Positions 13,413 to 46,664 of a stretch of DNA of 64,000 nucleotides are shown here, in pieces. The number at the start of each line of letters is the position of its first letter. Position 1 is the first letter of the stretch. The notes below the pieces were generated by a model. It did not search any database. It was given only the letters and a program-made list of their open reading frames with translations, and was not told where the DNA came from. The position numbers were made by a program, and so were the translations under genes. Origin of the DNA: Pseudonocardia sp. T1-2H (GTDB lineage: Bacteria > Actinomycetota > Actinomycetes > Mycobacteriales > Pseudonocardiaceae); contig NZ_JBBPCL010000001.1 of the NCBI RefSeq assembly GCF_038039215.1, forward strand, positions 2,790,001-2,854,000, written 5' to 3'.

Positions 13413-13484
13413 GGGGTCACTGTAAACACGCCCCGTCGGCTTGACGCGCGGTCAGCTCGTTGCGGACAGTGGTCTGCGACAACC

Positions 13485-13634
13485 ACATAGGGCGCGTGGG
13501 TCCAGGAAGCCGGTGCGAGTCCGGCGCGGTCCCGCCACTGTCACCGGGGAGCGAACCCCGCCACACGCCACTGGTCCGCGAGGGTCGGGAAGGCCGGGGC
13601 GAGCACCGATCCGGGAGCCAGGACACTGCCCCAC
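13485..13634 (+). promoter_or_regulatory. Cobalamin riboswitch upstream of cobN
   Basis: The B12 box is clear: GGAAGCCGGTGCGAGTCC followed by GGCGCGGTCCCGCCACTGT (13505-13541). Further on come GGGTCGGGAAGGCCGG and the closing block GAGCCAGGACACTGCC near 13615-13630. These are the conserved parts of the adenosylcobalamin aptamer. It lies in the gap between the divergent cobG and cobN genes and reads in the direction of cobN. Cobalamin binding would be expected to reduce cobN expression. Exact ends are estimated. Confidence 0.92.
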
Positions 13635-13640
13635 GCACCT

Positions 13641-13658
13641 GTGCGCGCCCGCGCGCAC
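13641..13658 (+). terminator. GC hairpin after the cobalamin aptamer (possible expression platform)
   Basis: GTGCGCGC and GCGCGCAC form a perfect 8-bp stem around CC just after the aptamer and about 80 bases before cobN. No U-run follows, as is usual in high-GC actinobacteria. It could be the terminator half of the riboswitch or simply a stable leader hairpin. Confidence 0.4.
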
Positions 13659-13737
13659 GACCGTTCTGACCTGGGACGAGGATCCCGAGGAAGGCTGTAG
13701 CTGTGACGTGCTGTGCCGCGCGCCGGGAGTGCTCCCG

Positions 13738-16700
13738 GTGATCCTGCTCCTCTCGACGTCCGACACGGACCTGCTCTCGGCCCGCGCCTCGGACGCGGAC
13801 TACCGGCTCGCCAACCCCAACCGCGTGCTGCTCGACGAGCTCCCGGCCATGGCGGCCGAGGCGGACGTCGTGGTCGTCCGGGTGCTCGGCGGCTACCGGT
13901 ACTGGGAGGAGGGGCTGGACGTCCTGCGCCGCTCCGACACCCCGCTCGTCGCGCTCGGCGGCGAGATGGCGCCGGACGCCGAGATGATGGCGCTGTCGTC
14001 GGTCCCCGCGGGCGTCGCGGCGGAAGCGCACACCTACCTCGCGCAGGGCGGCACGGACAACCTCGCACAGCTGCACGCGTTCCTCAGCGACACCGTCCTG
14101 CTCACCGGTGAGGGCTTCGCGCCGCCGGTCGCGCTGCCGGAGTGGGGGGTCCTCGAGCGGCCCGCCGCCGAGATCGACGGGCCGACCGTCGCGGTGCTCT
14201 TCTACCGTGCCCAGCAGATCGCCGGGAACACCGCCTACATCGAGGCGCTCTGCCGGGCGATCGAAGCCAAGGGAGCGCGGCCGCTCCCGATCTTCTGCGC
14301 GTCGCTGCGGCAGGCCCCGGCCGCGCTGCTGGACACGCTCCGGGACGCCGACGCCATGATCGTCACGGTGCTCGCGGCGGGCGGCACCAAGCCCGCCTCG
14401 GCGCAGGCCGGCGGCGAGGACGAGGAGTGGGACGTCGCCGAGCTCGCCGCGCTCGACGTCCCGATCCTGCAGGGTCTGTGCCTCACCTCCAGCCGCGCCA
14501 CCTGGGAGGACAACGACGACGGGCTGTCTCCGCTGGACGTCGCCACGCAGGTCGCGGTCCCGGAGTTCGACGGCCGGCTGATCACCGTCCCGTTCTCGTT
14601 CAAGGAGATCGACGCGGACGGGCTCAGCGTCTACGTGCCCGATCACGAGCGCGCGCTCCGGGTCGCCGGGATCGCCGTGCGGCACGCGCTGCTGCGGCGC
14701 ATCCCGAACGCGGACAAGAAGATCGTGCTGATGCTGAGCGCGTACCCGACCAAGCATGCGCGCATCGGCAACGCCGTCGGGCTGGACACGCCGGCCAGCA
14801 CCGTCGCCCTGCTGAAGGCCATGGACGAGGCGGGCTACGACGTCGGCGAGTTCCCGGGCGTCACGGCGCAGGACGGCGACGCGCTGATCCACGCGCTCAT
14901 CGAGGCGGGCGGGCAGGACCCGGACTGGCTCACCGAGGAGAAGCTCGCGGGCAACCCGATCCGCATCTCCGCGGTGCAGTACCGGCGCTGGTTCGACACC
15001 CTGCCCGAGGATTTGCGCGCGGGCGTCGAGGAGCACTGGGGACCCGCGCCCGGCGAGCTCTACGTGCAGGACGGGGACATCGTCGTGGCGGCGCTCCGTT
15101 CGGGGAACGTCACGCTGATCGTGCAGCCGCCGCGCGGGTTCGGCGAGAACCCGGTCGCGATCTACCACGACCCGGACCTGCCGCCGTCGCACCACTACCT
15201 GGCGGCCTACCGCTGGCTCGCCGCGCCGGTGAGCGACGGGGGGTTCGGCGCCGACGCCGTCGTGCACATCGGCAAGCACGGCAACCTCGAGTGGCTGCCC
15301 GGCAAGACGCTCGGGATGAGCGCCTCCTGCGGCACCGACGCCGCGCTCGGCGACCTGCCCCTGATCTACCCCTTCCTGGTCAACGACCCGGGCGAGGGCA
15401 CGCAGGCCAAGCGCCGGGCGCACGCCACGCTCGTCGACCACCTGATCCCGCCGATGGCCCGCGCCGAGACCTACGGGGACATCTCCCGCCTCGAGCAGCT
15501 CCTCGACGAGCACGCGAACATCTCCGCGCTGGACCCGGGCAAGCTGCCGGCGATCCGCCAGCAGATCTGGACGCTGATGCAGGCGGCCAAGCTGGACCAC
15601 GACCTCGGGCTGTCCGAGCGCCCGCACGAGGCCGAGTTCGACGACTTCCTGTTACACGTCGACGGCTGGCTGTGCGAGATCAAGGACGTCCAGATCCGCG
15701 ACGGTCTGCACGTCCTCGGGCTCGCGCCGACCGGGGACACCCGGGTGGACCTCGTCCTCGCGATGCTGCGGGCCCGGCAGATGTGGGGCGGCGAGCAGAA
15801 CGTGCCCGGCCTGCGCGAGGCGCTCGGGCTCGTCGAGGACGGGAGCGAGCAGAAGGCCAGGGTCGACGAGGTGGAGGCCCTCGCACACGCCCTCGTCGCG
15901 GACATGGAGGCTGCCGCCTGGGATGCCGGCGCCGCGCCGGGGATCGTCGCGTCCCGACTCGCGCGGGCCCAGACCGCGACTCGCGCGGGCCGTGACCCCG
16001 ACTCGCGCGGTCTCACACCCCGACTCGCGGGGTCGCAGATCGCGACTCGCGGGGATGGCGCCGAGACCCCCGCGAGTCGGGGTCTCGCGCCGCCCGAGTC
16101 GGGGTCTGTGGCCGGGTCCGGCGTCGCCGAAACGGTGGAGACGATCCTGCGGTTCGCCGCCGACGAGGTGATCCCGCGGCTCGCGGAGACCTCGCAGGAG
16201 ATCGCGCGGGTGCTGCACGCGCTGAACGGCGGGTTCATCCCGGCCGGTCCCTCCGGCTCACCGCTGCGCGGGCTGATCAACGTGCTCCCGACCGGCCGGA
16301 ACTTCTACTCCGTCGACCCGAAGGCCGTCCCGTCGAAGCTCGCCTGGGAGACCGGGCTGGCGATGGCGGAGTCGCTGGTCGAGCGGTACCGCAGCGACCA
16401 CGACGGGGAGTACCCGCGCTCCGTCGGCCTGTCCGTCTGGGGCACCAGCGCGATGCGGACGAGCGGCGACGACGTCGCGGAGGTCTTCGCGCTGCTCGGC
16501 GTCCGGCCGGTCTGGGACGAGGCCAGCCGCCGGGTCACCCGGCTCGAGGTGATCGACCTCGACGAGCTGGGCCGCCCGCGCATCGACGTCACGGTCCGCA
16601 TCTCCGGTTTCTTCCGGGACGCGTTCCCGCACGTCCTGGCCCTGCTCGACGACGCGGTGCAGCTCGTCGCGAACCTCGACGAGACCGCCGAGCAGAACTT

Positions 16701-17478
16701 CGTGAAGGCCCACGTCACGCTCGACGAGCAGCGCACCGGCGACCGGCGGCGCGCCACCACGCGGATCTTCGGCTCCAAGCCGGGGACCTACGGGGCGGGC
16801 CTGCTCCAGCTCGTCGACTCCCGGAGCTGGCGCGACGATGCCGACCTCGCCGAGGTCTACACGACCTGGGGCGGCTACGCCTACGGCCGTGGGCTCGACG
16901 GCGCGCCCGCCCGCGACGACATGGAGACCGCCTACCGGCGGATCACGGTGGCGGCGAAGAACACCGACACCCGCGAGCACGACATCGCGGACTCCGACGA
17001 CTACTACCAGTACCACGGCGGCATGATCGCCACGGTCCGCGCGCTCACCGGCTCTGCGCCCGAGGCGTACGTCGGGGACTCGACCCGGCCCGAGGCGGTC
17101 CGGACCCGGACGCTGCACGAGGAGACCGCGCGCGTCTTCCGGGCGCGGGTGGTGAACCCGCGCTGGATCGAGGCGATGCGCCGCCACGGGTACAAGGGCG
17201 CCTTCGAGATGGCCGCGACGGTGGACTACCTGTTCGGCTGGGACGCGACCACCGGCGTCGTCGCCGACTGGCAGTACGAGAAGCTCAGCGAGACCTACGT
17301 CCTGGACCCGGACAACCGCAAGTTCCTCTCCGAGTCCAACCCGTGGGCGCTGCACGGCATGGCCGAACGCCTGCTCGAGGCCGCGGAGCGCGGGCTGTGG
17401 GAGGCGCCGGAGCAGGCCACTCTGGACGCGCTGCGGCAGGCCTACCTGGAGACCGAGGGCGACCTCGAGGAGGAGTAG
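13738..17478 (+). CDS. cobN: Cobaltochelatase subunit CobN
   Basis: A protein of about 1246 residues, the large subunit of the ATP-dependent aerobic cobaltochelatase that inserts cobalt into hydrogenobyrinate a,c-diamide. Family blocks are visible: VILLLSTSDTDLLSARAS at the start, HIGKHGNLEWLPGK (near residue 510), PTGRNFYSVDPKAVPS (near 853) and NPWALHGMAERLLEA near the end. GTG 13738 was chosen because it begins this conserved block and CGGGAG lies eight bases upstream; GTG 13729 and 13708 are alternatives. Residues about 737-791 are translated from a 22-bp repeat array and have no place in the family. They fall in a linker before FAADEVIPRL, so the enzyme may still work. A cobalamin riboswitch precedes it. 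Confidence 0.95.
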   Translation: MILLLSTSDTDLLSARASDADYRLANPNRVLLDELPAMAAEADVVVVRVLGGYRYWEEGLDVLRRSDTPLVALGGEMAPDAEMMALSSVPAGVAAEAHTYLAQGGTDNLAQLHAFLSDTVLLTGEGFAPPVALPEWGVLERPAAEIDGPTVAVLFYRAQQIAGNTAYIEALCRAIEAKGARPLPIFCASLRQAPAALLDTLRDADAMIVTVLAAGGTKPASAQAGGEDEEWDVAELAALDVPILQGLCLTSSRATWEDNDDGLSPLDVATQVAVPEFDGRLITVPFSFKEIDADGLSVYVPDHERALRVAGIAVRHALLRRIPNADKKIVLMLSAYPTKHARIGNAVGLDTPASTVALLKAMDEAGYDVGEFPGVTAQDGDALIHALIEAGGQDPDWLTEEKLAGNPIRISAVQYRRWFDTLPEDLRAGVEEHWGPAPGELYVQDGDIVVAALRSGNVTLIVQPPRGFGENPVAIYHDPDLPPSHHYLAAYRWLAAPVSDGGFGADAVVHIGKHGNLEWLPGKTLGMSASCGTDAALGDLPLIYPFLVNDPGEGTQAKRRAHATLVDHLIPPMARAETYGDISRLEQLLDEHANISALDPGKLPAIRQQIWTLMQAAKLDHDLGLSERPHEAEFDDFLLHVDGWLCEIKDVQIRDGLHVLGLAPTGDTRVDLVLAMLRARQMWGGEQNVPGLREALGLVEDGSEQKARVDEVEALAHALVADMEAAAWDAGAAPGIVASRLARAQTATRAGRDPDSRGLTPRLAGSQIATRGDGAETPASRGLAPPESGSVAGSGVAETVETILRFAADEVIPRLAETSQEIARVLHALNGGFIPAGPSGSPLRGLINVLPTGRNFYSVDPKAVPSKLAWETGLAMAESLVERYRSDHDGEYPRSVGLSVWGTSAMRTSGDDVAEVFALLGVRPVWDEASRRVTRLEVIDLDELGRPRIDVTVRISGFFRDAFPHVLALLDDAVQLVANLDETAEQNFVKAHVTLDEQRTGDRRRATTRIFGSKPGTYGAGLLQLVDSRSWRDDADLAEVYTTWGGYAYGRGLDGAPARDDMETAYRRITVAAKNTDTREHDIADSDDYYQYHGGMIATVRALTGSAPEAYVGDSTRPEAVRTRTLHEETARVFRARVVNPRWIEAMRRHGYKGAFEMAATVDYLFGWDATTGVVADWQYEKLSETYVLDPDNRKFLSESNPWALHGMAERLLEAAERGLWEAPEQATLDALRQAYLETEGDLEEE
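15948..16110. repeat. Array of 22-bp repeats inside cobN
   Basis: Five direct 22-bp units start at 15948, 15970, 15992, 16014 and 16036, each with core CGACTCGCG. A nine-base gap follows, then two inverted units at 16067-16088 and 16089-16110 (core CGAGTCGG). Because 22 is not a multiple of three, successive units are read in different frames (SRLARA, TATRAG, DPDSRG, TPRLAG, IATRG). Unit four and the first inverted unit can pair over at least 16 bases. Confidence 0.85.
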
Positions 17479-42674: not shown

Positions 42675-43535
42675 ATGACCGGACTCGCCGACCACGTGGC
42701 CGACTGGAAGCCCGAGCCGCTCGAGGAGACGGACATCGTCGGGGCCTGGCCCTCCGGTGCGTTCGCGGCGCTGCTCGACCAGCCCACCCCGATCGACGAG
42801 CGGGACGCGCCGTTGCCGCTCGGCTGGCACCGCTTCCACTTCCTGGAGGCGCCGGCGACGGCGGAGCTGGGCGAGGACGGGCACGTGCGCGAGGGCCGAT
42901 TCCTCCCGCCGATCCCGAACCGCCGCCGGATGTTCGCGGGCGGCCGGCTCATGGTGCACTCGCCGATCCGCGTCGGTGACGAGATCGTGCGGCGCAGCGA
43001 GGTCACATCCGTCGAGCCGAAGTCCGGGCGCAGCGGCGAGATGCTGTTCGTGACACTGCGCCAGGAGTTCCGGCGGGACGGGCTGCTGCTCCTCGTCGAG
43101 GAGGAGGACGCGGTCTACCGGCAGCAGGAGCCCGGCACGCCGCGCGCCACCCCGCAGGCCCCGGCGCCCTCCGAGCTGCCGGACGCGGCGCCGTGGCGGG
43201 CGATGCTACATCCCGACGAGGCGATGCTGCTGCGGTTCAGCGCGCTCACCTACAACGCGCACCGCATCCACTACGACCTGCCGTACGCCCGCGAGGTCGA
43301 GGGCTTCCCGGGCCTGCTCGTGCACGGTCCGCTGCTCGCGCTGCTGCTCCTGGAGCTGCCGCGGAGGTTCGCGCCGGACCGCCAGGTGACCGAGTTCTCC
43401 TACCGCCTGCGGTCCCCGTCGTTCGCGGGTGCCCCGATCGTCGCCGACGGCACCCCGACGGACACCGGCGTCGATCTCGCCGCCGGGGTCCCGGGAGCCG
43501 CCCCGGCCATCACCGGCACGGCCACCTTCGCCTGA
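42675..43535 (+). CDS. FAS1-like / mesaconyl-CoA hydratase-type dehydratase (MaoC fold)
   Basis: 286 residues with two hot-dog domains. The first has PLPLGWHRFHFLE and RRRMFAGGRLMVHSPIRVGDE. The second has ALTYNAHRIHYDLPYAREVE, the MaoC-type catalytic His/Asp region (YNAHRIHYD), then LLVHGPLLALLLLELPRR. These enzymes hydrate mesaconyl-C4-CoA or similar acyl-CoAs. ATG 42675 follows GGAGGAGG. The stop is three bases before a 22-bp repeat array. It stands alone; the physiological substrate cannot be named. Confidence 0.85.
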   Translation: MTGLADHVADWKPEPLEETDIVGAWPSGAFAALLDQPTPIDERDAPLPLGWHRFHFLEAPATAELGEDGHVREGRFLPPIPNRRRMFAGGRLMVHSPIRVGDEIVRRSEVTSVEPKSGRSGEMLFVTLRQEFRRDGLLLLVEEEDAVYRQQEPGTPRATPQAPAPSELPDAAPWRAMLHPDEAMLLRFSALTYNAHRIHYDLPYAREVEGFPGLLVHGPLLALLLLELPRRFAPDRQVTEFSYRLRSPSFAGAPIVADGTPTDTGVDLAAGVPGAAPAITGTATFA

Positions 43536-43538
43536 CCC

Positions 43539-43690
43539 CCCCGCGAGTCGCGCTCCAGGACCGCGCGAGTCGCGCTCTGAACGCCCGCGAGTCGCGCTCT
43601 GAACCCCCGCGAGTCGGGGTTCGGGGCCGGGCGAGTCGCGGTCTGCGACCGGCGAGTCGGGCCTGGGGCCCACGAGCCGCGATCGGGTGG
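43539..43690. repeat. Array of seven 22-bp repeats, GAGTCG orientation
   Basis: Units start at 43539, 43561, 43583, 43605, 43627 (22 bp each) and 43649 and 43670 (21 bp). Core is GCGAGTCGCG or GCGAGTCGGG; units two and three differ only in their first base. The last unit has decayed to CGAGCCG. The array begins three bases after a stop codon, inside the 627-base gap before tex. The unit is the reverse of that in 43927-44080. Confidence 0.85.
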
Positions 43691-43820
43691 ATCGTGCGAT
43701 TCGGGGCCCGGGTCGAGCTCAGGACAGCCGGTTCCACTGCGGAGAGTTCGGGTGCGGGCGAACCGCATCCCTCGAGCAGGGCGTCCGGCCGGCGCCGATT
43801 TCGTGTCGCCGACCATCCGC

Positions 43821-43881
43821 GGTCACGATCCCGGGAGCGAGAGTGGCACCTGGCGTCTGTCCTGGTCCCGAGATCGTGATC
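43821..43881. repeat. Palindromic repeat between the two 22-bp arrays
   Basis: Left arm GGTCACGATCCCGGGAGC (43821-43838) and right arm GGTCCCGAGATCGTGATC (43864-43881) are inverted with three mismatches. The left arm matches the cobG-internal element at 16 of 18 bases. The rest of 43691-43926 holds no gene. Confidence 0.65.
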
Positions 43882-43926
43882 ACGAGGCGCTTCGCTGATC
43901 GCGTGCGGGTGCGAGCACTCCCGGAC

Positions 43927-44080
43927 TTGGATCCCGACTCGCCCGGCCTTGGATCGCGACTCGCCCGGGCTCAGATCGCGACTCGCTCGGCCTTGGATCC
44001 CGACTCGCCCGGGCTCCGATCCCGACTCGCGGGGTTCTGGGGCGCGACTCGTGGGGTGTCATGCCGCGACCCGCGGGATG
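43927..44080. repeat. Array of seven 22-bp repeats, CGACTC orientation
   Basis: Seven units of exactly 22 bases start at 43927, 43949, 43971, 43993, 44015, 44037 and 44059, with core CGACTCGCCCGG at the left and CGACTCGCGGGG or CGACCCGCGGGA at the right. The array ends about 80 bases before tex. It faces the array at 43539-43690 as an inverted copy. Confidence 0.88.
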
Positions 44081-44162: not shown

Positions 44163-46664
44163 GTGACAGGTTCGGTTCCCCCAGCGCAGTCGCCCGCCGC
44201 CCCCGCCCCGGCCTCGCCCGCCGCCCCCGAGGCCCCGGCGAAGTCCTACGCGGGATGGTCCATCCCGCAGCGGATCGCCGACGAGATCGGGGTGCGCACC
44301 AACCAGGTCGTCGCCGCCGTCGACCTGCTCGACGGCGGTTCCACCGTCCCCTTCATCGCCCGTTACCGGAAGGAGGCGACCGAGGAGCTCGACGACGCGC
44401 AGCTGCGTACCCTCGAGGAGCGCCTCCGCTACCTCCGCGAGCTGGAGGAGCGCCGTACCGCCGTCCTCGACGAGATCCGCAAGCAGGGCAAGCTCGACGA
44501 GGTCCTGGAGGCGCGGATCCTCGCCGCCGAGTCCAAGGCCCGCCTCGAGGACATCTACCTGCCGTTCAAGCCGAAGCGCCGCACCAAGGCGATGGTGGCC
44601 CGCGAGAACGGCCTCGAGCCGCTCGCGGACGCGCTGTTCGGGGACCCGACGCTGGACCCGCAGACCACCGCGGCGGACTACCTGAACGACAACGTGGCGG
44701 ACGCCGCCGCAGCCCTCGAGGGTGCCCGGTCGATCCTGGTCGAGCGGTTCTCCGAGGAGGCCGATCTCATCGGCGGCCTGCGCGAGCGCATGTGGTCCAA
44801 GGGCGTGCTCGTCTCCAAGGTCCGCGAGGGCAAGGAGACCGAGGGCGCCAAGTTCTCGGACTACTTCGACTTCTCCGAGCCCTTCACCAAGCTGCCCAGC
44901 CACCGGATCCTCGCGGTGTTCCGCGGGGAGAAGGAGGAGATCCTCGACGTCGCGCTGGAGCCGGACTCCCAGCCGGTCGAGCCCGGCCGGCGCTCGGACT
45001 ACGAGACCCTGATCGCCGCGCACGTCGGGATCTCGGACCAGGGCCGCGCGGCGGACAAGTGGCTGAACGACGTCGTCCGCTGGACCTGGCGCACCCGCAT
45101 CCTGCTGCACCTGGGCATCGACATCCGGGTCCGGCTGCGCACCGCCGCGGAGGAGGGCGCCATCGGCGTCTTCGCCTCCAACCTCCGGGACCTGCTGCTC
45201 GCCGCGCCGGCCGGCACCCGCACGACCATGGGCTTGGACCCGGGCCTGCGGACCGGCGTCAAGGTCGCGGTCGTCGACGGCACCGGCAAGGTGCTGGCCA
45301 AGGAGACGGTCTACCCGCACGAGCCCCGCAAGGACTGGAAGGGTGCCCTCGCGACGCTGTCGAAGCTCGCCGCGGCCCACCAGGTCGAGCTGATCGCGAT
45401 CGGCAACGGCACGGCGTCCCGTGAGACGGACGCGCTGGCCGGTGAGCTCGTCGCGCAGAACCCCGCGCTGAAGATGACCAAGGTGATGGTCAGCGAGGCC
45501 GGGGCGTCGGTCTACTCGGCGTCCGCGTACGCGTCGGCCAGCTTCCCGGACCTGGACGTCTCCATCCGCGGCGCCGTCTCCATCGCGCGCCGGCTGCAGG
45601 ACCCGCTGGCCGAGCTGGTCAAGATCGATCCGAAGTCCATCGGCGTCGGGCAGTACCAGCACGACCTTCCCGAGTCGTCGCTCTCGCGCTCGCTCGACGC
45701 CGTCGTCGAGGACTGTGTGAACGCCGTCGGCGTGGACCTGAACAGTGCGTCCGCCCCGCTGCTGCGCCGGGTGTCCGGGATCAGCGAGTCGCTGGCCGCC
45801 GGGATCGTGGCGCACCGCGACGCGAACGGCCCGTTCCGCACCCGCACCGCCCTGGCCGACGTGCCCCGGCTCGGCCCGAAGGCGTTCGAGCAGTGCGCGG
45901 GCTTCCTGCGGATCCGGGGCGGCGACGAGCCGCTGGACGTCTCGGGCGTGCACCCGGAGTCCTACCCGGTGGTCCGGAAGATGGTCGCCGCCGCGAAGGT
46001 CCAGGGGATCGGCGAGCTGATCGGCAACGCGCCGAAGCTCAAGACCCTGCAGCCGAAGCGGTTCGTCGACGACCAGATCGGTCTGATCACCGTCACGGAC
46101 ATCCTCGCCGAGCTGGAGAAGCCCGGCCGGGACCCCCGTCCCGCGTTCCGCACCGCGACCTTCGCCGAGGGCGTGCACAAGATCGCGGACCTGCGGCCGG
46201 GGATGCTGCTGGAGGGCGTGGTCACCAATGTCGCCGCCTTCGGCGCGTTCGTCGACGTCGGGGTGCACCAGGACGGGCTCGTGCACGTCTCGGCGATGTC
46301 GAAGGACTTCGTCTCGGACCCGCGCGAGGTCGTGAAGTCGGGCGACGTGGTCCGGGTCAAGGTCATGGAGGTCGACGAGGCCCGCAAGCGGATCTCGCTG
46401 ACCCTGCGCCTCGACGACGAGCCGGGCGCAGGCAAGGGCAAGCGGCCTGCCAGAGGAGACGGCGCGCAGGGACAGGGTCAGGCCGGCCGCCGGGACGAGC
46501 GCGGCGGAGACCGCCGGGGCGGGCCCCGCGGCGGCAAGCCGAGCGGCGGCGGCAAGCCCGGCGGGAAGCAGGATGACCGGCGCGGGAGCGGGCAGCGTCA
46601 GGACAAGCCGGCCCCGCTGAGCAACGCGATGGCGGACGCACTGAAGCGGGCCGGCTTCAAGTAA
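44163..46664 (+). CDS. tex: Tex family RNA-binding transcription accessory protein
   Basis: 833 residues. The order is Tex_N helix-turn-helix (WSIPQRIADEIGV), a YqgF-like RNase H fold (TTMGLDPGLRTGVKVAVVDG, about residue 350), helix-hairpin-helix repeats (RTALADVPRLGPKAFEQC), and an S1 domain (RPGMLLEGVVTNVAAFGAFV). The last 85 residues are Gly/Lys/Arg-rich. Tex proteins bind RNA and act with RNA polymerase; YqgF catalytic residues are usually lost. GTG 44163 is adopted, though GGAGGG is only two bases upstream; GTG 44142 is the alternative. A repeat array lies just upstream and a duplicated hairpin just downstream. Confidence 0.92.
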   Translation: MTGSVPPAQSPAAPAPASPAAPEAPAKSYAGWSIPQRIADEIGVRTNQVVAAVDLLDGGSTVPFIARYRKEATEELDDAQLRTLEERLRYLRELEERRTAVLDEIRKQGKLDEVLEARILAAESKARLEDIYLPFKPKRRTKAMVARENGLEPLADALFGDPTLDPQTTAADYLNDNVADAAAALEGARSILVERFSEEADLIGGLRERMWSKGVLVSKVREGKETEGAKFSDYFDFSEPFTKLPSHRILAVFRGEKEEILDVALEPDSQPVEPGRRSDYETLIAAHVGISDQGRAADKWLNDVVRWTWRTRILLHLGIDIRVRLRTAAEEGAIGVFASNLRDLLLAAPAGTRTTMGLDPGLRTGVKVAVVDGTGKVLAKETVYPHEPRKDWKGALATLSKLAAAHQVELIAIGNGTASRETDALAGELVAQNPALKMTKVMVSEAGASVYSASAYASASFPDLDVSIRGAVSIARRLQDPLAELVKIDPKSIGVGQYQHDLPESSLSRSLDAVVEDCVNAVGVDLNSASAPLLRRVSGISESLAAGIVAHRDANGPFRTRTALADVPRLGPKAFEQCAGFLRIRGGDEPLDVSGVHPESYPVVRKMVAAAKVQGIGELIGNAPKLKTLQPKRFVDDQIGLITVTDILAELEKPGRDPRPAFRTATFAEGVHKIADLRPGMLLEGVVTNVAAFGAFVDVGVHQDGLVHVSAMSKDFVSDPREVVKSGDVVRVKVMEVDEARKRISLTLRLDDEPGAGKGKRPARGDGAQGQGQAGRRDERGGDRRGGPRGGKPSGGGKPGGKQDDRRGSGQRQDKPAPLSNAMADALKRAGFK

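What the first reader, a model, noticed from the sequence alone, without database searches (positions are those of the whole stretch)
15948..16110. A 22-bp repeat array has invaded the cobN reading frame
Seven units of a 22-bp repeat (five direct, two inverted, core CGACTCGCG) lie within the cobaltochelatase gene. They add about 54 residues of frame-rotating peptide to a linker without a stop. 22 is not a multiple of three, so the total inserted length must have been tuned to keep the frame. The same unit occurs 28 kb away outside genes. I know of no named element with this unit.
Basis: partly seen in the sequence, partly recalled or inferred. Interest (0 to 1): 0.82.

Follow-up and report, generated by a model that had tools for sequence, protein, structure and literature searches.

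The report
Repeat landing pad inside CobN gene
A short DNA repeat that normally sits right behind the ends of genes in this soil bacterium has also lodged inside a vitamin B12 enzyme gene, in a region where relatives carry repeats of other kinds, so this region looks like a recurrent landing pad.

Summary
In detail: window 15951-16105 holds seven 22-bp units (five direct, two inverted) in frame inside cobN. They belong to a dispersed family: 118 exact unit pairs in the genome, 0 for the reversed control. The reading needs correcting. In the 940 kb of own DNA read, 57 of 59 arrays lie outside genes or over a gene end; 46 of 68 runs lie within 40 nt of a stop codon; none lies between divergent genes. 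The cobN array is inherited: the nearest relative has one + and one - unit there. Array positions are mostly shared (22 of 26) while unit numbers vary. The cobN linker is a recurrent landing pad: in at least 16 of 39 Pseudonocardia genomes it carries a repeat found elsewhere in that genome, from five sequence families. In 25 genomes of other genera it is short, without a strong inverted repeat. A solved CobN has 4 residues where this one has 62. Most likely: passive, frame-constrained tolerance of REP/RPE-like repeats, with no need of a Y1 transposase. How they spread, and what 3'-end arrays do, is unproven.

The parts
13441..17478 (+). cobN (cobaltochelatase subunit CobN) open frame; my codon-usage caller starts it at 13729
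   Evidence: Pfam PF02514 over residues 101-1230 of the 1249 from 13729
15951..16105 (+). 22-bp repeat array in frame inside cobN, five + units then two - units, junction gap 1 nt
15952..16137 (+). stretch coding residues 742-803, facing 4 residues in solved CobN 7c6o; 35 of its 62 residues modelled below pLDDT 50, between two helices
16068..16111 (-). the two inverted units, forming long inverted repeats with the direct units
   Evidence: D3, I1-I4; fold z -4.9 for the array
43533..43642 (-). second array, five units, overlapping by 3 nt the end of the + gene that ends at 43535
43931..44062 (+). third array, six units, 100 nt before the + gene starting at 44163

Best explanation
The array is one copy of a dispersed 22-bp tandem and inverted repeat of Pseudonocardiaceae. 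SHOWN: most arrays sit beside stop codons; positions are mostly shared between near relatives while the number, and in one case the orientation, of units differs, as in a minisatellite; the cobN copy lies in a linker that is short in the 25 genomes of other genera looked at and nearly absent from a solved CobN, is a multiple of three long, and is modelled in its middle part as disordered. SHOWN: the same region in other members of the genus carries copies of other repeat families found elsewhere in those genomes. INFERRED: a founder inverted pair inserted in the linker before own and G172 split; unit gain and loss then expanded it to five plus two units; purifying selection removed insertions that shifted the frame, made a stop or hit a folded part. 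INFERRED: the region is recurrently occupied because the polypeptide tolerates frame-keeping inserts there. The way new sites are seeded is unknown; it does not need a Y1 (RAYT) transposase.
For: 118 exact unit pairs, control 0. Of 59 arrays in the own DNA read, 2 inside a gene, 1 over a gene's 3' end by 113 nt, 56 with at most 6 nt overlap; 242 of 249 same-strand spacings exactly 22. 46 of 68 runs of two or more units within 40 nt of a stop codon, against 18.9% of random intergenic positions. 0 of 57 between divergent genes, which hold 32% of the intergenic bases read. 22 of 26 G172 arrays at or beside the matching place of an own array, with differing unit numbers. Adjacent units 80% alike, units of different arrays 70%. 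Other genera: linker 117-144 nt, best inverted-repeat score 12, 25 genomes; genus: 135-375 nt, score 14 or more in 15 of 39. 4 residues in 7c6o. Residues 130-164 of the model below pLDDT 50, block means 35-41, between helices 103-124 and 165-202. No Y1_Tnp match in own genome; in 5 of 40 genus genomes, not following repeat number.
Against: Passive tolerance does not by itself explain why cobN is hit again and again while intragenic copies are otherwise rare (2 of 59, cobN included; 4 of 112 and 2 of 30; 1 of 10; 1 of 53). The first 13 or so residues of the insert are modelled as a helix at high confidence (block mean 95), and low confidence is not unique to the insert: residues 1-33 and 209-231 are low too. 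No insertion event with a clean empty site and target duplication was seen, so mobility is inferred from dispersal only. Two of 25 genomes of other genera slightly exceed their 20 shuffles (G051 12 against 9, G024 11 against 10).
Confidence: 0.6

Rival explanations
1. The 22-bp arrays are clustered binding sites for a DNA-binding protein (nucleoid, supercoiling or recombination factor). Units about two helical turns apart put the sites on one face of the DNA; the cobN copy is a stray site.
For: Spacing exactly 22 bp in 242 of 249. Position -2, which no search seed fixed, is C in 95% of units while spacer positions 12-14 vary. No base-pair covariation within the unit. 43 single-orientation arrays fold little, mean z -0.6 and -1.5 for the two strands. 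Own and G172 can have opposite orientation beside the same stop.
Against: Spacing is also kept by plain tandem duplication. The core and the GG at positions 10-11 were fixed by the patterns that located the sites, so their conservation counts for little. The 10-nt spacer differs between genomes. No candidate protein was looked for.
Confidence: 0.3
2. The 3'-end repeats act as transcription terminators or mRNA 3'-end protectors; cobN carries a weak internal one.
For: Position beside stop codons in the four families tested for it. The 55-bp double palindromes of other genomes fold strongly: mean z -8.6, 51 of 52 below -2. 13 mixed-orientation arrays have z -2.1 to -11.3. Clusters of hairpins near stop codons have been proposed as terminators (PMC8355165, abstract and section list seen).
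Against: 43 of the 56 22-bp arrays folded (those of three or more units) have one orientation and fold little; 6 and 12 of 43 reach z below -2 on the two strands. For family ii the number of pairs changed on both sides does not exceed shuffles, and families iii and v show no excess pairing over shuffles. A strong terminator inside cobN would cut off the second half of the gene, yet the frame is maintained.
Confidence: 0.3
3. The cobN insert is functional: a selected hairpin or disordered peptide that tunes CobN, so different families replaced each other in a conserved role.
For: Repeats of five sequence families in the same region, in at least 16 of 39 genomes.
Against: Several genus members have a short linker without a strong inverted repeat (135-153 nt: G163, G169, G161, G176, G139, G174). 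The encoded peptides differ, and each 22-bp unit is read in a rotated frame. Two different loops are used in the two CobN clades.
Confidence: 0.1
4. The region is a directed insertion hotspot: the machinery that seeds new repeats prefers an older palindrome or a sequence there, so families land on one another.
For: Recurrent use. One array place holds units of opposite orientation beside the same stop in own and G172, and in another place a whole sub-array lies next to a shared one in own only.
Against: Two loops, not one exact site. No target sequence or target duplication was seen; neither was searched for systematically.
Confidence: 0.2

Closest known systems
Rickettsia palindromic elements (RPE) and Wolbachia palindromic elements
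   Same: Dispersed palindromic repeats found in frame inside protein genes, in solvent-exposed parts; [quoted passage not shown] PMC10969869, passages read).
   Different: RPEs are about 100-150 bp and frequent in ORFs; here the unit is 22 bp in tandem, most copies lie beside stop codons and few in ORFs, and unit number is volatile. No sequence relation was tested.
REP / BIME / REPIN elements with RAYT (Y1) transposases
   Same: Short, high-copy repeats in direct and inverted arrangement, mostly outside genes (PMC2817692 and PMC3116915, only the starts of the abstracts seen in the listing; the rest recalled).
   Different: No Y1_Tnp match in own genome. Among 40 genus genomes 5 have one (G104, G154, G161, G166, G168); the repeat-rich G000, G172, G162, G164, G151, G157, G176 and G180 have none. 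The 22-bp unit shows no stem covariation.
Bacterial minisatellites / VNTR, MIRU-type repeats
   Same: Tandem units with differing copy number at shared places.
   Different: Units also occur inverted, and one consensus is dispersed over at least 59 arrays. MIRU is recalled from memory, not tested.
DNA uptake sequences in inverted pairs
   Same: Short dispersed repeats, often as inverted pairs behind genes (recalled, no call).
   Different: Not tested; nothing here points to uptake.

Membership tests
REPIN/RAYT system | A Y1 (RAYT-type) transposase in the genome | tested here: not met
   PF01797: 0 matches in own genome while 5 of 14 control genomes ring; 5 of 40 genus genomes
REPIN/RAYT system | Short palindromic unit forming a stem | tested here: inconclusive
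   22-bp unit: no Watson-Crick covariation; of 43 single-orientation arrays 6 and 12 reach z below -2 on the two strands; mixed-orientation arrays and the 55-bp elements of other genomes do fold
REPIN/RAYT system | Mostly extragenic | tested here: met
   56 of 59 arrays with at most 6 nt overlap with a called gene, 1 over a gene end, 2 inside
Rickettsia palindromic element-like in-frame repeat | Repeat captured in frame inside a gene, absent from orthologs | tested here: met
   cobN linker against 25 genomes of other genera and PDB 7c6o
Rickettsia palindromic element-like in-frame repeat | A large share of copies lies inside ORFs | tested here: not met
   2 of 59 in own DNA read, 4 of 112 in other records
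Rickettsia palindromic element | Sequence of a known RPE family | not tested
   No RPE sequence was compared
Minisatellite / VNTR | Unit number varies at orthologous places | tested here: met
   Own against G172, two species; variation within a species was not tested
MITE | A shared body between terminal inverted repeats | tested here: not met
   Segments between - and + runs share only short partial matches, the longest 57 nt at 75%
MITE | Target site duplication | not tested
   No systematic search was made

The most novel reading that the evidence does not exclude
The CobN linker region is not just tolerant but a directed or selected site. In one genus, five sequence families of dispersed repeats have entered the same short region of the same enzyme, in frame, replacing one another over time. 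Either the seeding machinery homes to this place, or a hairpin or disordered insert in the middle of cobN is useful to the cell.
Probability: 0.2. Interest if true: 0.85.

Novelty: new variant of a known kind. Interest (0 to 1): 0.6.

Why it matters
It gives a natural series, across one genus, of a core metabolic enzyme that repeatedly accepts repeat-coded peptide in the same region, with repeat-free relatives and a solved structure as controls. That makes the question of how selfish or structural DNA becomes protein sequence directly testable. It also shows several high-copy repeat families beside gene stops in Pseudonocardia, not tied to RAYT, whose spread and function are open.

Tried and rejected
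Chance: rejected by the reversed-pattern control. RAYT-driven REPs: no Y1_Tnp in own genome, and presence in the genus does not follow repeat number; G104 and G168 have both. MITE body between - and + runs: no shared body, only short partial matches. RNA structure of the 22-bp unit: no covariation, weak folding of single-orientation arrays. Known RNA family: four matches up to E = 1, all far below gathering scores. Exact pattern in viral contigs: none; array by blastn at E 1e-5 in plasmid and phage collections: none. An IS110-type transposase beside one array (L142) had one other weak match among the loci held, L296, and was not pursued. A single-sequence structure model was poor (pLDDT 38) and was discarded. 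A first script on orthologous sites had a wrong overlap filter and was replaced.

Limits: gene calls come from my own codon-usage caller, trained on own DNA and reused for other genomes. The own DNA read (940 kb) is enriched for array sites, and the random control comes from the same DNA. Dropped before counting: 15 of 83 runs with one unit; arrays nearer than 700 nt to a locus end; elements nearer than 300 nt to a locus end; 8 of 60 elements with fewer than 15 arm pairs. The elements were chosen by best arm pairing, which inflates pairing. In one search the inverted-repeat score used 20 shuffles per linker. Of 40 genus genomes, G165 had no CobN match and G153 and G167 only pieces; they are not among the 39, which include G004 and G082. 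The family searches did not cover all 39: 22-bp and families ii and iii covered 37 (G004 and G082 only the 22-bp pattern), family iv 12 genomes, family v 7, so 16 is a lower bound.

Full report
WHAT IS THERE. Window 15951-16105 holds seven 22-bp units inside the open frame of cobN (13441..17478, +). Five direct units with exact core CGACTCGCG lie exactly 22 bp apart. After a 1-nt junction come two inverted units, the second with one mismatch in its core. The gene is CobN: Pfam PF02514 covers residues 101-1230 of the 1249 counted from 13729. The window lies in a 6,998,239-base genome, G000.

A DISPERSED FAMILY. The pattern of two cores one unit apart occurs 59+59 times in the own genome; the reversed control occurs 0+0 times. 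In 150 genomes of the family, 5 match, own included (own 118, G143 89, G029 8, G031 2, G081 2). In 40 genus genomes, 14 match. The 10-nt spacer looks different from genome to genome, so expansion seems lineage-specific. The exact pattern was not found in viral contigs, nor the array by blastn in plasmid or phage collections.

WHERE THE ARRAYS LIVE. I read 940 kb of own DNA: the sites of the 100 pairs listed, the window, and a contiguous 510 kb, with a simple codon-usage gene caller (863 genes, coding fraction 0.84). Of 59 arrays with two or more units (322 units), 2 lie inside a gene, 1 overlaps a gene's 3' end by 113 nt, and 56 overlap a gene by at most 6 nt. Same-strand spacing is 22 in 242 of 249 cases. 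Of 68 same-orientation runs of two or more units, 56 are nearest to a stop codon and 12 to a start; 46 lie within 40 nt of a stop, against 18.9% of random intergenic positions; of those 46, 32 have one orientation relative to the gene and 14 the other. By gene pair, 24 arrays are convergent, 33 tandem, 0 divergent, 2 inside a gene; divergent pairs hold 46,832 of 144,576 intergenic bases. In other records, of 112 arrays 84 are nearest to a stop (68 within 40 nt), 24 to a start and 4 lie inside a called gene. The other intragenic own array lies in the last part of a ligase-like frame (317295-317382), so cobN holds the only array in the middle of a gene in the own DNA read.

INHERITANCE AND TURNOVER. 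In G172, 22 of 26 arrays lie in or within 400 nt of stretches that align to own DNA holding an array within 700 nt; 4 have no match in the own DNA read. Unit numbers differ: 7 against 2 in one clean case, a whole sub-array present in own only in another, and three + units facing three - units beside the same stop in a third. Adjacent units are 80% identical, non-adjacent units of one run 77%, opposite-strand units of one array 71%, units of different arrays 70%. So most positions are shared, while unit number and sometimes orientation change.

THE COBN SITE. Cut between conserved anchors, the linker is 300 nt in own and 213 nt in G172, which has one + and one - unit. G171 and G177 have inverted sets; G159, G166 and G179 have direct units 22 bp apart; G156 has two - units. 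All 37 genus linkers are multiples of three; its list has 38 rows, as G172 appears twice. The own-G172 difference is 87 nt, a multiple of 3 but not of 22. Of 13 orthologous array intervals with clean anchors, 3 differ by a multiple of three. In 25 genomes of other genera the linker is 117-144 nt and the best inverted repeat scores at most 12, though two of them slightly exceed their shuffles (G051, G024). In 39 genus genomes it is 135-375 nt, with a score of 14 or more, above all 20 shuffles, in 15. Solved CobN 7c6o has 4 residues where own has residues 742-803. A model built on 64 sequences puts helices at residues 103-124 and 165-202 of the piece, with residues 130-164 below pLDDT 50 (block means 35-41). 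The insert is residues 112-173, so 35 of 62 are low; its first 13 or so are modelled as helix at high confidence, and the piece has other low stretches outside the insert.

OTHER FAMILIES IN THE SAME LINKER. Many other members with long linkers carry other repeats there. For at least 16 of 39 genomes the linker's family has copies elsewhere in the same genome (counts include the linker copy where the pattern meets it). 22-bp family: G000 118, G172 35, G156 18, G177 14, G171 4, G179 4. Family ii (AAAGCCACTTT): G162 86, G164 76, G157 28, G184 15, G151 12. Family iii (GACGAACG...CGTTCGTC): G180 146 and G168 122 strand-hits, most palindromes counted twice. Family iv: G170 22 and G155 3, one of the 3 being the linker copy. 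Family v: G104 41. G159 and G166 have 22-bp units in the linker but no exact pair elsewhere. G151 is richest in family iii (364 strand-hits) yet its linker holds family ii, so it is not always the commonest family that lands. Most elements of families ii to v that I extracted (52 of 60; only 2 for iv) fit a 55-bp double palindrome of 25-5-25 layout. For family ii (32 elements), 89% of stem cells are paired against at most 81.5% in shuffles, but pairs changed on both sides are no more than in shuffles (9 against 9.5), and families v and iii show no excess pairing; elements were selected for arm pairing, which inflates the figures. They too sit beside stop codons: family iii 27 of 30 elements in G180 and 22 of 23 in G151, one divergent place in each, family v 8 of 10, family ii 19 of 30. 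Family iv was not tested for this. Whether the families share an ancestor is not settled. In the CobN clade of own the repeats lie just before the conserved ILRFAADEV segment; in the other clade they lie earlier, after DEQ-LL--PG. The region is shared; the exact site is not.

MECHANISM. Shown: dispersed family, placement beside stops, mostly shared positions with volatile unit number, frame-keeping linker, occupation by several families in this genus and not in the 25 other genomes looked at. Inferred: founder insertion, later unit gain and loss, and selection for frame and for harmless places. A Y1 transposase is not needed: none in own, 5 of 40 in the genus, and the repeat-rich G000, G172, G162, G164, G151 and G180 have none. 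Function at 3' ends stays open. The double palindromes fold strongly (mean z -8.6), 13 mixed 22-bp arrays have z -2.1 to -11.3, but 43 single-orientation arrays fold little (mean z -0.6 and -1.5 on the two strands). The unit shows no internal base-pair covariation; its strongest links are between neighbouring columns and columns 22 apart, with some others among the spacer columns. This fits a linear DNA site, or a passive minisatellite, better than an RNA hairpin.

COMPARISON. The nearest published kind I found is the Rickettsia palindromic element, found in frame in genes, in exposed parts, with different groups at or near the same loci of orthologs; its authors weighed hotspots against divergence from one insertion and did not exclude hotspots (PMC3767692, passages read; PMC10969869, passages read). 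Ours differs in unit length, tandem structure, home beside stop codons and rarity in ORFs. The RepRanger paper on REP sequences does not mention Pseudonocardia in its main text (PMC12306157, word search). I saw no paper naming this unit or a repeat in cobN in the searches, which cover open-licence papers only and whose longer lists were seen in part; one search searched two 8-letter cores, found 497 papers and listed 15, none of which looked relevant by title.

Noticed in passing
own genome 317295-317382 (L189 4956-5043): A 22-bp array lies in the last part of the called frame of a ligase-like gene and would encode part of a long C-terminal tail.
   Followed up: partly
L114 5364-7691; L136 1351-4293; L277 955-3018: Other likely in-frame captures: 22-bp units in an FMN oxidoreductase-like and a (weakly) sacsin-like gene, and a family ii palindrome in a DMFA2_C gene. 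Not compared with orthologs.
   Followed up: partly
G151, G157, G162, G164, G168, G180, G104 and others: High-copy palindromic repeats beside stop codons, with different sequence families in different Pseudonocardia genomes; many extracted elements fit a 25-5-25 double palindrome.
   Followed up: partly
L046 5704-5792: 22-bp units in a contig labelled Deltaproteobacteria MAG; binning error or transfer not resolved.
   Followed up: no
window 43643-43930: The stretch between the two arrays holds other short palindromes (such as ATCGTGATCACGA), and several such inter-array stretches share matches of 14-18 nt, with partial ones up to 57 nt.
   Followed up: no
L142 888-1952: An IS110-type transposase gene (family name recalled) lies beside a 22-bp array; one further weak match near an array, L296.
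   Followed up: partly
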